A stretch of 44,699 bases of DNA. Source: Asaia bogorensis (lineage in GTDB: Bacteria; Pseudomonadota; Alphaproteobacteria; Acetobacterales; Acetobacteraceae). Below the pieces are notes generated by a model that did no database searches, was not told where the DNA came from, and worked only from the letters and a program-made list of their open reading frames with translations. The position numbers and the translations under genes are program-made. Each line of letters starts with the position of its first letter. Positions within the stretch are counted from its first letter, which is position 1. The DNA lies in contig CAMCDA010000011.1 in NCBI GenBank assembly GCA_945873195.1, forward strand, positions 1 through 44,699. The letters are read 5' to 3'. Positions 16-21,064 of this stretch are shown here, piece by piece.

Positions 16-46
16 GCGATGGTCGGGTCGAGCCCGACCAGGACGG
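16..46. repeat. palindromic repeat, family A, copy 1
   Basis: A 31-bp near-palindrome with arms GGTCGGG and CCCGACC. It differs at three positions from the copy at 20110-20140 and has the same orientation. A third copy, inverted, is at 19671-19701. The remaining bases up to the first gene show only a ribosome binding site. What the element belongs to lies off the left edge. Confidence 0.75.
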
Positions 47-18666: not shown

Positions 18667-19641
18667 ATGTTCACCTGGCTCATCCGCCGCCTGATCCAGG
18701 CCGGCTTTGTCGTGCTGGCGATGACCGTGATCGTCTTCATCGGCGTTCACATCATCGGCAATCCGGTCGATATCCTGATCTCACCGGAGGCCGACCAGGC
18801 GGAACGGGCGCGGATCATCGCAGAGATGGGCTTCGATCGTCCCTTGTGGGAGCAGTACTTCATCTTCGTGAAGGACGCGATGCAGGGGAACCTCGGCCGC
18901 AGCTTCGTGTTCAACGAACCCGCGCTGAAACTGATCGCGGGACGGATGCCGGCGACGCTGGAGCTGGCGGTGACGGCGGTGCTGTTTTCCATCTGCTTCG
19001 GCGTGCCGCTGGGGCTGTATGCGGGGTTGAAGCCCGACAGCCTGGCCGGCCGGACGATCATGGCCGGCAGTATCCTGGGCTTTTCGCTGCCCACCTTCTG
19101 GGTCGGGCTGATGCTGATCATGGTCTTCGCCGTTCAGCTCGGCTGGCTGCCGAGCACGGGGCGAGGGGAGACGGCTGAGCTGTTCGGGATTCAGTGGTCG
19201 TTCCTGACCTGGGACGGGCTGCGGCATATGTTCATGCCGGCGTTGAACCTGTCGCTGTTCAACATCTCGTTGGTGCTGCGCCTGACGCGGGCGGGCGTGC
19301 GCGAGACGTTGCCGATGGACTACATCAAGTTCGCCCGCGCCAAGGGCCTGTCGCCCCGGCGGGTGGTCCTGGTGCATGTGTTGAAGAACATCATGATCCC
19401 GGTGGTGACGGTGGTCGGGCTGGAGCTTGGCTCCACCATCGCGTTCGCCGTGGTGACGGAGAGCGTGTTCGCCTGGCCGGGGATGGGCAAGCTGATCATC
19501 GACAGCATCAACGTGCTGGATCGTCCGGTGATCGTTGCATATCTGATGATGATCGTGCTGCTGTTCATCACGATCAACCTGATCGTGGATATTCTTTACA
19601 CGGTGCTGGACCCGCGGGTTCGGCTGGAGACGAAGGCGTGA
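18667..19641 (+). CDS. peptide-type ABC transporter permease (DppB-like)
   Basis: This 324-residue permease has six predicted membrane segments and the DppB/OppB signatures: an N-terminal FTWLIRRLIQAGFVVLAMTV helix, GNLGRSFVFNEP after the first periplasmic loop, and the cytoplasmic coupling loop DYIKFARAKGLSPRRVVLVHVLKN. It starts 6 bases after the binding-protein stop. In intact operons the second permease follows almost directly; here 517 bases containing an antisense GIY-YIG gene and two palindromes intervene. Confidence 0.95.
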   Translation: MFTWLIRRLIQAGFVVLAMTVIVFIGVHIIGNPVDILISPEADQAERARIIAEMGFDRPLWEQYFIFVKDAMQGNLGRSFVFNEPALKLIAGRMPATLELAVTAVLFSICFGVPLGLYAGLKPDSLAGRTIMAGSILGFSLPTFWVGLMLIMVFAVQLGWLPSTGRGETAELFGIQWSFLTWDGLRHMFMPALNLSLFNISLVLRLTRAGVRETLPMDYIKFARAKGLSPRRVVLVHVLKNIMIPVVTVVGLELGSTIAFAVVTESVFAWPGMGKLIIDSINVLDRPVIVAYLMMIVLLFITINLIVDILYTVLDPRVRLETKA

Positions 19642-19670: not shown

Positions 19671-19701
19671 CCGTCATGGTCGGGCTTGACCCGACCATCG
19701 C
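19671..19701. repeat. palindromic repeat, family A, copy 2 (left end of cassette)
   Basis: A 31-bp near-palindrome (CCGTCATGGTCGGG...CCATCGC). Read in reverse complement, the copy at 20110-20140 matches it with one mismatch. The two copies thus form inverted ends around the GIY-YIG gene. Confidence 0.85.
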
Positions 19702-19742
19702 TCGGGACTCCGACGGGGGCGCAAGCGCACCCATCCATCGCT

Positions 19743-20030
19743 TCAACCAACCGTACCCGCCAGATCATGCCATCCCGGATTGCCCGCCGTGATGAGATCA
19801 AGCTTCCACGCCCGACGCCAACGCTTCAACGACGTCTCCCGCTGGATCGCGGTGGCGATGTCATCGTGCCATTCCGCATAGACCAGGCGGGACAGGTGAT
19901 AGCGGTGGGTGAACCCTCCCGTTCCCGTCCGATGCTGGTGCAGGCGACGCGGCAGGTCGGCGGTCACGCCGATGTAGAGCGTGCCGAAGGCCTGGTTGCA
20001 GACGATGTAGACCCAGCCACCATTCCGCAT
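19743..20030 (-). CDS. small GIY-YIG nuclease family protein
   Basis: This 95-residue protein is a stand-alone GIY-YIG domain of the UvrC/YhbQ-like class. The conserved residues are present: Tyr8 in WVYIV, GTLYIGVT (Gly16, Tyr19), Arg28/Arg29 in ADLPRRLHQH, Glu65 in QRETSLK (metal ligand) and Asn84 in GNPGW. There is no DNA-binding or zinc-finger extension. It lies on the strand opposite to the surrounding transport operon and is bounded by inverted palindromes. Family members cut or nick DNA; the biological role of these short proteins is not established. The ribosome binding site is weak. Confidence 0.9.
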   Translation of the reverse strand: MRNGGWVYIVCNQAFGTLYIGVTADLPRRLHQHRTGTGGFTHRYHLSRLVYAEWHDDIATAIQRETSLKRWRRAWKLDLITAGNPGWHDLAGTVG

Positions 20031-20109
20031 GGCGGGATCGTAGGCTGGAATGGGTTAACGGTTTGTGAGCGTCCTCGACGGGGGGAGGCCATAGACACAC
20101 GAATCTTGG

Positions 20110-20140
20110 GCGATGGTCGGGTCAGGCCCGACCATGACGG
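20110..20140. repeat. palindromic repeat, family A, copy 3 (right end of cassette)
   Basis: A 31-bp near-palindrome (GCGATGGTCGGG...CCATGACGG), inverted relative to the copy at 19671 with one mismatch. It ends 18 bases before the start of the second permease gene. Confidence 0.85.
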
Positions 20141-20158: not shown

Positions 20159-21064
20159 ATGAGCACCACCACAGCCCCGATCGCCCCGCGGGAGGAAACG
20201 CCCTTCCAGCGGTTCGTCTCCGAATTCGCGGCCTCCAAGCTCGCGCTGGTCGGGCTCGCGGTGTTCACCATCATCGCCCTGCTGGCCATCTTCGCGTCCT
20301 GGATCACCCCGCAGAACCCCTACGATCTCGCACAGCTCGACATCCTTGATGGCCGCCTGCCGCCCGGATCGCCCTCCGCCACCGGCTACACCTTTCTCCT
20401 CGGCACCGACGACCAGGGCCGGGACATGTTCTCGGGCATGCTCTACGGCCTGCGCATCAGCCTTGGCGTCGGCATCGGATCGGCGCTGTTCGCCTGCCTT
20501 GTCGGCACCAGCCTCGGCCTGCTCGCCGCCTATGCCGGCGGCCGGACCGAGAGCATCATCATGCGCGTCGTCGATCTCCAGCTTTCCTTCCCCACCATCC
20601 TGGTGGCGCTGATGATCCTCGCCGCCCTCGGCAAGGGCGTGATGAACGTCGTCTTCGCGCTGGTCATGGTCGAGTGGGCCTATTACGCCCGAACCGTGCG
20701 CGGCACCGCGATGGTCGAACGCCGGCGGGAATACATCGAAGCGGCCGAGTGCCTGGCACTCCCCTACCGCCGAATCATGTTCCGCCATCTGCTGCCGAAC
20801 TGCCTGCCGCCGCTGATCGTCATCGCGACACAGCAGGTCGCCCGCGCCATCGCGCTGGAAGCGACCCTGTCCTTCCTCGGCCTCGGCGTGCCGATCACCG
20901 AGCCGTCGCTCGGCCTGCTGATCGCCAACGGGTATCAATACATGCTGTCGGGCAAATACTGGATCAGCTTCTACCCCGGCATCGCGCTGCTGGTGACGAT
21001 CGTGTCCATCAATCTCGTGGGCGACCAGCTTCGCGATATTCTCAATCCCAGGCTGAAACGATGA
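20159..21064 (+). CDS. peptide-type ABC transporter permease (DppC-like)
   Basis: This 301-residue permease of the DppC/OppC class has an N-terminal cytoplasmic segment (FQRFVSEFAASKLALVGLAVF), HLLGTDDQGRD-like FLLGTDDQGRDMFSGMLYG, six membrane segments and the coupling loop YIEAAECLALPYRRIMFRHLLPN. It pairs with the permease upstream to form the channel. Its stop overlaps the ATPase start by four bases (ATGA). Because the GIY-YIG cassette separates it from the first permease, its expression may depend on read-through or on a promoter within the cassette. Confidence 0.95.
   Translation: MSTTTAPIAPREETPFQRFVSEFAASKLALVGLAVFTIIALLAIFASWITPQNPYDLAQLDILDGRLPPGSPSATGYTFLLGTDDQGRDMFSGMLYGLRISLGVGIGSALFACLVGTSLGLLAAYAGGRTESIIMRVVDLQLSFPTILVALMILAALGKGVMNVVFALVMVEWAYYARTVRGTAMVERRREYIEAAECLALPYRRIMFRHLLPNCLPPLIVIATQQVARAIALEATLSFLGLGVPITEPSLGLLIANGYQYMLSGKYWISFYPGIALLVTIVSINLVGDQLRDILNPRLKR

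What the first reader, a model, noticed from the sequence alone, without database searches (positions are those of the whole stretch)
19671..20140. GIY-YIG nuclease gene bounded by inverted 31-bp palindromes, sitting antisense inside a peptide-transport operon
The two permease genes of a Dpp-type operon normally touch. Here 517 bases separate them, containing a 95-residue GIY-YIG protein on the opposite strand. Its bounds are two near-palindromic 31-mers that are each other's reverse complement with one mismatch. A further copy of the 31-mer lies at 16-46. This looks like a repeat-plus-nuclease unit, comparable in logic to REP elements with their RAYT transposases but with a GIY-YIG enzyme in place of a Y1 transposase. 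The nuclease has all catalytic residues. It could be a new type of self-propagating repeat or a domesticated one.
Basis: partly seen in the sequence, partly recalled or inferred. Interest (0 to 1): 0.8.

Follow-up and report, generated by a model that had tools for sequence, protein, structure and literature searches.

The report
Nuclease gene bounded by REP palindromes
A tiny DNA-cutting enzyme gene is framed by two copies of a hairpin-forming repeat that also occurs many times elsewhere in the same genome, and relatives in many bacteria show the same pairing, which suggests that this enzyme is the missing partner of a large family of bacterial repeats.

Summary
A 95-aa GIY-YIG nuclease (19743-20030, minus strand) lies between two inverted 31-mers (one mismatch) inside a dppB-dppC operon. 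The 31-mer is a CGTC-tagged REP, a family reported in 2013 to 'apparently lack a dedicated transposase'. The genome holds 31 close copies, among them eight outward-tagged dimers, and two such nucleases, both REP-flanked. Homologues behave alike: 134 of 170 loci have an inverted repeat around the gene above all in-locus controls; an outward REP pair flanks 50 of 104 homologues against 1 of 108 other genes. Four REP types are commoner in genomes with the matching nuclease lineage. Relatives have empty junctions at two sites. In Mesorhizobium, 77-89% identical units sit in unrelated places, alike from the CGTC tag inward on both ends; no target duplication was found. Caveats: 27 of 41 genus copies sit at three shared sites, 36 of 170 loci lack a clear repeat pair, REP-rich genomes without the nuclease exist, and mobility by the nuclease is inferred. 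A Neisseria homologue (52% identical) among CGTC repeats suggests the Ssn single-strand nuclease family (recalled; paper not held).

The parts
19671..19701 (+). CGTC-tagged REP at the 3' side of the nuclease gene; tag 19672-19675, stem 19676-19684/19690-19698, loop CTTGA
19743..20030 (-). GIY-YIG nuclease, 95 aa (P0001)
   Evidence: PF01541 54.6 bits; AlphaFold2 model pLDDT 92.7; nearest solved folds UPF0213 1zg2 and Slx1
20110..20140 (-). CGTC-tagged REP at the 5' side of the nuclease gene, tag outward at 20136-20139
19672..20139 (.). whole unit, tag to tag, 468 bp
   Evidence: inferred from homologous units elsewhere that are alike from the tag inward
16..46 (-). solo REP copy of the same type, 2 mismatches
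18667..19641 (+). DppB/OppB-type permease (host gene)
   Evidence: PF00528 135.7 bits
20159..21064 (+). DppC/OppC-type permease (host gene)
   Evidence: PF00528 110.1 bits

Best explanation
It is a REP-nuclease unit: a small GIY-YIG endonuclease bounded by two outward-tagged copies of its cognate CGTC REP. The genome-wide REPs and REP dimers carry the same ends but no gene, as REPINs are to RAYT transposases. Most likely the nuclease recognises the REP hairpin with its unpaired 5' CGTC tag when the DNA is single-stranded (replication, repair, uptake) and cuts at or near the tag; host repair or recombination then lets REP-ended DNA settle elsewhere. Shown: the architecture, its recurrence, repeat types that go with nuclease lineages at genome level, ends at the tag in moved units, empty sites, purifying selection. 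Inferred: that the nuclease binds and cuts the REP, that the substrate is single-stranded, and that cutting causes the spread.
For: Inverted repeat around the gene above every in-locus control in 134 of 170 loci, a measure that does not look for the tag; 101 of those 134 arms hold an outward tag [CT]GTC[AG], 45 an inward one, 15 neither (subsets). Outward REP pair in 50 of 104 homologue loci vs 1 of 108 other genes in the same loci and 0 of 309 predicted genes in 388 kb of the own genome. Tagged hairpins 3.15/kb in flanks vs 0.17/kb elsewhere (65 loci) and 3.64 vs 0.24 (107 loci). Both nucleases of the own genome are REP-flanked, each with its own stem. REP copy number is higher in genomes with the matching nuclease lineage for the four types tried (AUC 0.95-0.98, p 0.0009 to 5e-6, 32 genomes; relatedness not corrected; type 2 by flanking REP alone AUC 0.99). 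Class-wide, nuclease (E <= 1e-15) and REP model co-occur in 66 genomes, nuclease only 25, REP only 37, neither 161, of 289 (odds ratio 11.5). Empty junctions at dppB-dppC in 8 genomes and at a second site in 5 of 24. Six Mesorhizobium units, 77-89% identical, in unrelated contexts, two in one genome, alike from tCGTCAT inward on both ends (the latter with a seventh); likewise L021 against L029/L093. Boundary direct repeats of 3 or more in 2 of 82 units, 1.8 expected. dN/dS 0.04-0.25 in 12 pairs.
Against: 27 of 41 genus nucleases sit at three shared sites, so vertical inheritance explains much of the REP-nuclease match; for pairs in different contexts nuclease and REP similarity are uncorrelated (rho -0.04, 555 pairs). 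In tree-independent pairs REP abundance went with the nuclease in about 10, against it in 0 and undecided in about 6 of 16 pairs pooled over four types, with thresholds I set after seeing the counts; no type is significant alone. One clade for the six dpp-junction nucleases is not rejected (p 0.224). REP-rich genomes without a nuclease hit exist (19 of 68 with 10 or more REPs; G010 with 212 type-2 REPs) and 25 of 91 nuclease genomes gave no REP-model hit. 36 of 170 loci show no clear repeat pair. Only 2 of 10 dimer arms clearly share inner sequence with the unit. A REP-dimer empty-site test was inconclusive. A hydrolytic nuclease has no known strand-transfer activity (recalled).
Confidence: 0.68

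Rival explanations
1. The nuclease is an Ssn-type site-specific single-strand nuclease that uses REPs as recognition sites to regulate DNA uptake or genome exchange; the REPs were or are spread by something else, and the flanking pair serves regulation or termination of the nuclease gene.
For: The N. gonorrhoeae homologue (52% identical) lies among CGTCATTCCC..GGGAAT repeats; Ssn/NTS is recalled as acting on transformation. Purifying selection and inheritance at fixed sites suit a host function.
Against: Units occur in unrelated contexts with ends at the tag; REP-rich genomes without a nuclease hit are the minority, 19 of 68.
Confidence: 0.22
2. A homing-endonuclease-like selfish gene that re-enters the same intergenic sites by cutting empty alleles; the REPs are by-standers.
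For: The same sites are occupied in some species of the genus and empty in others, with 4 changes of state on the best gene tree at each of two sites.
Against: Units also lie in many unrelated contexts; REPs bound most of them, and the empty junctions as printed show no REP.
Confidence: 0.06
3. Ordinary intergenic REPs that happen to flank a small gene.
For: REPs are known to prefer gene ends (PMC3733652, passages); only 16 control genes had 60 nt or more of intergenic DNA on both sides.
Against: Control genes 1 of 108 and 0 of 309; 1 of those 16 against 50 of 104 homologues, p 0.002.
Confidence: 0.02

Closest known systems
CGTC-tagged REPs (Di Nocera et al. 2013, PMC3733652)
   Same: CGTC/TGTC unpaired tag, AT-first stem of 8-9 bp, loop 4-5, CC(A) tail, head-to-head dimers, common in Alphaproteobacteria
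   Different: That paper found no dedicated enzyme and its main text does not contain a word beginning with 'GIY'; here a GIY-YIG nuclease goes with them
REPIN-RAYT systems / REPtrons (GTAG REPs)
   Same: Low-copy enzyme gene flanked by its repeats, many short dimers, several repeat-enzyme pairs per genome (REPtrons); mostly vertical inheritance (recalled)
   Different: Enzyme is GIY-YIG, not a Y1 HUH transposase; tag is CGTC, not GTAG
Ssn site-specific single-strand nucleases with NTS repeats (Neisseria; recalled, paper not held)
   Same: Homologous GIY-YIG protein, repeats of the CGTC type around and beyond the gene
UPF0213 / Slx1 / UvrC GIY-YIG nucleases
   Same: Fold and active site
   Different: Remote in sequence (26% to 1zg2); the one outgroup read here, from phage RHph_Y65, has no tagged hairpins or inverted repeats

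Membership tests
CGTC-tagged REP | unpaired CGTC (TGTC, CCTC) tag at one end | tested here: met
   seen directly in the window REPs; in arms found without regard to the tag, 101 of 134 hold it outward. The 82 REPs were selected with [CTG][GC]TC[AC], so their T and C prove nothing; first two letters C61/T19/G2 and G80/C2
CGTC-tagged REP | stem 8-9 bp beginning AT, loop 4-5 | tested here: met
   window REP ATGGTCGGG / CTTGA / CCCGACCAT; in homologues AT first in 76 of 82, but these were selected for pairing and for A or C
CGTC-tagged REP | high copy, mostly head-to-head dimers | tested here: met
   31 copies, eight outward-tagged dimers beside the unit itself; 5 of 5 dimers of the CGTC(A/C)TGG kind in the 388-kb sample outward-tagged
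REPIN-RAYT | Y1 HUH tyrosine transposase | tested here: not met
   Pfam finds GIY-YIG (and a weak T5orf172) only
REPIN-RAYT | GTAG tag | tested here: not met
   tag is CGTC
REPIN-RAYT | repeat type matched to the enzyme lineage | tested here: inconclusive
   met at genome level for four types; not significant after tree-independent pairing of any one type; no correlation for pairs in different contexts
Ssn nuclease family (recalled) | homology to the Neisseria GIY-YIG protein | tested here: met
   51.8% identity over 84 aa to the N. gonorrhoeae protein; that this gene is Ssn is recalled
Ssn nuclease family (recalled) | site-specific cleavage of single-stranded DNA | not testable with these tools
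   needs purified protein
GIY-YIG homing endonuclease | sits at its own recognition site, one kind of target | tested here: not met
   many unrelated contexts, mostly bounded by repeats

The most novel reading that the evidence does not exclude
The GIY-YIG protein is itself the mobilising enzyme of a new class of hairpin-ended, duplication-free mobile elements: it cuts single-stranded REP hairpins at the CGTC tag, and the CGTC REPs of Alphaproteobacteria, Neisseria, Bacteroidota, Chloroflexota and others are its non-autonomous offspring. This would be a GIY-YIG counterpart of IS200/RAYT single-strand transposition.
Probability: 0.35. Interest if true: 0.92.

Novelty: new variant of a known kind. 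Interest (0 to 1): 0.75.

Why it matters
CGTC REPs have been found in all orders of Alphaproteobacteria (PMC3733652), and the paper that defined them left open what mobilises them. A partner enzyme that goes with them makes that question directly testable, joins the Neisseria repeats and the REP field into one picture, and offers a second, independent enzymatic solution to the REPIN-RAYT way of life.

Tried and rejected
Mantel test of nuclease against REP similarity for loci in different contexts: nil. AU test for separate origins of the dpp-junction copies: not significant. REP-dimer empty sites in G014 and seven others: no synteny across the dimers, inconclusive. REP dimers as internal deletions of the nuclease unit: 2 of 10 arms with clear inner similarity (at most 6 of 500 shuffles), the rest not. 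Relic of the unit in the G017 junction: 4 of 300 shuffles, weak; in G024 and G022 none. Covariation of the REP stem is biased because I chose sequences by pairing. Pfam T5orf172 (20.2 bits) set aside as weaker than PF01541. Literature: ten searches; seven returned nothing; one search listed five papers that by title and abstract start concern restriction enzymes (not opened); one search listed twelve, of which I opened PMC3733652; one search listed PMC9465073, which holds both words incidentally (passages). So nothing I saw ties GIY-YIG to REPs, within that library. The Ssn paper is not held; what I say of it is recalled.

Full report
What is there. The window is contig C11 of a 5.45-Mb, 400-contig assembly. 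Between a DppB-type permease (18667-19641) and a DppC-type permease (20159-21064) lie 517 bases holding a 95-aa GIY-YIG protein on the opposite strand (19743-20030) and two inverted 31-mers with one mismatch at 19671-19701 and 20110-20140. A third copy lies at 16-46. Shuffles of the window never gave a match.

What the repeat is. It is a hairpin with 9-bp stem and 5-base loop, preceded by unpaired CGTC. This meets the description of CGTC-tagged REPs in PMC3733652 (abstract, twelve passages and sections 6, 14 and 16 seen; [quoted passage not shown] In the own genome 31 places match at up to one mismatch, including eight outward-tagged dimers besides the unit. In a 388-kb sample, five of five dimers of this kind have 57-60 bases between the hairpins and outward tags, the REPIN layout.

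What goes with the protein. The own genome has two homologues. The second (contig 54, 58% identical) is flanked by its own inverted REP pair with a different stem. Of 59 genomes (own and relatives) 34 hold homologues, 67 matches. They make 66 loci (two matches are pieces of one broken gene); one (L118) had no script hit and was dropped. In the 65 left, tagged hairpins are 18 times denser within 300 bp of the gene than beyond, with tags mostly facing outward (upstream 42 loci outward, 9 inward; downstream 46 and 16), and 34 of 65 have the outward pair. A further 107 loci (27 new ones from 289 genomes of the class; the best 80 of 578 confirmed named relatives) gave an outward pair in 52 of 107. 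Pooled, the inverted-repeat score beats all in-locus controls in 134 of 170 loci; 36 do not, among them L032, L013, L028, L035, L098, L101 and L022. At least four loci of the second set repeat the first (L167, L188, L214, L246, judged from identical sequence or contig length). Hosts with a repeat pair above controls include Bradyrhizobium, Mesorhizobium, Caulobacter, Bacteroidota (L185, L209, L237), Chloroflexota (L217), Omnitrophota (L186, L219) and a Uhrbacteria bin (L241); some are metagenome bins whose names may be wrong. Control genes: outward pair in 1 of 108 in the same loci and 0 of 309 in the own genome, against 50 of 104 homologues with both flanks; only 16 controls have 60 nt or more of intergenic DNA on both sides, 1 with a pair (p 0.002).

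Matching of repeat and nuclease. Four REP types were counted in 32 genomes of the genus. Type 1 (window type): carriers 431, 31, 14; others at most 35. Type 2: carriers 508, 380, 219, 165, 153, 10; others up to 212. Type 3: carriers 31-117; others up to 48. Type 4: carriers 1-58; others up to 8 (tests). Carriers were named by flanking REP, except that for type 2 I added two genomes (G011, G026) by nuclease clade after seeing the counts; without them the AUC is 0.99. Much of the match is shared descent: 27 of 41 genus nucleases sit at three shared sites, and G025 and G008 share three nuclease-REP pairs at shared sites. For pairs in different contexts there is no correlation. In tree-independent pairs the direction was the same in 0.9, 2.9, 2.9 and 3.0 of 1, 4, 7 and 4 pairs and never opposite, but no type reaches significance and the thresholds were set after seeing the counts.

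Empty, REP-only and full sites. At dppB-dppC eight relatives have a gap of at most 60 bp (G022, G007, G029, G003, G016, G017, G004, G001), G024 has 118 bp without a nuclease hit, and G014, G019, G009 and G012 (with stops) hold a nuclease; in G011 and G031 it lies beside dppC on a contig that ends there; G027 is undecided. At a second shared site (the place of the contig-54 copy), of 24 genomes with both flanks on one locus 11 hold the unit, 5 have at most 35 bp (11 bp in G009 and G029) and 8 are intermediate; G001 there holds only a REP dimer. On the best gene tree each site needs 4 changes of state. Whether the dpp copies are separate insertions is open: they fall into three clades, but one clade is not rejected (p 0.224).

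Defined ends. Mesorhizobium loci carry units in unrelated flanks; six of them, two in one genome (L220, L221), are 77-89% identical over the gene with similarity confined to 350 bp on either side. With a seventh (L223, one flank short) the alignment is conserved from tCGTCAT inward on both sides and unlike outside. L021 and L029/L093 share a unit (nuclease 81-84% identical) but no context by blastn beyond short chance-level matches. Of 82 units with both tags found, 2 have a boundary direct repeat of 3 or more, 1.8 expected, taking the first base of the tag as the end; so no target duplication was detected.

The protein. dN/dS is 0.04-0.25 in 12 pairs (NG86). AlphaFold2 gives a confident GIY-YIG fold; the nearest solved folds are UPF0213 and Slx1, the latter a structure-specific nuclease. 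A Neisseria gonorrhoeae homologue, 52% identical, sits among CGTCATTCCC..GGGAAT repeats; PMC3733652 says that the Neisserial CGTC-1 elements are the dRS3 repeats. I recall a 2025 report of GIY-YIG 'Ssn' nucleases that cut single-stranded DNA at such repeats in Neisseria and affect transformation; it is not held here. If so, the nuclease-repeat partnership is biochemically known in one genus, and this window holds a relative.

How it most likely works. The unit resembles REPIN-RAYT in logic, with hairpin plus tetranucleotide tag as substrate and a GIY-YIG enzyme as cutter. Recognition and cutting of the REP by this protein, its single-stranded substrate and a role in spread are inferences. The rival that the enzyme serves DNA exchange or genome care while REPs spread otherwise remains open. 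It is not a member of the RAYT family: enzyme fold and tag differ.

Noticed in passing
L137 13640-13760 (own genome C7): A different ~110-bp repeat whose match gives many dozens of hits in G014 and G024.
   Followed up: no
L120 4822-4900, L124 17090-17170 (own genome C1): A second, shorter REP-dimer type (CGTCATCCCGG...) with 25-26 bases between hairpins; neither of the two nucleases found in this genome is flanked by it.
   Followed up: no
L299 (Azospirillum lipoferum AZO_p3): A homologue with REP pairs on both sides sits between sufB and sufC, another operon with the unit inside.
   Followed up: partly
L073 (G012) and L117 (G038): Decayed nuclease copies: stops in the dpp-junction copy of G012, a broken copy in G038 still with an outward REP on each side.
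   Followed up: partly
L220, L221, L223, L235, L236, L243, L244: Mesorhizobium units have long, imperfect palindromic ends that begin with the same CGTCAT tag.
   Followed up: partly
L288 (G016): At the second shared site REP-like ends enclose another repetitive sequence, perhaps a nested element (by reading).
   Followed up: no
L246 / G019: L246 has the contig length and place of G019:C29 and is titled Rhodospirillales bacterium 69-11, which hints at the lineage of the window's genus.
   Followed up: no
NZ_CP119140.1, NZ_AP026896.1: PLSDB 'plasmid' records of 2.17 and 4.94 Mb that look like chromosomes by size.
   Followed up: no
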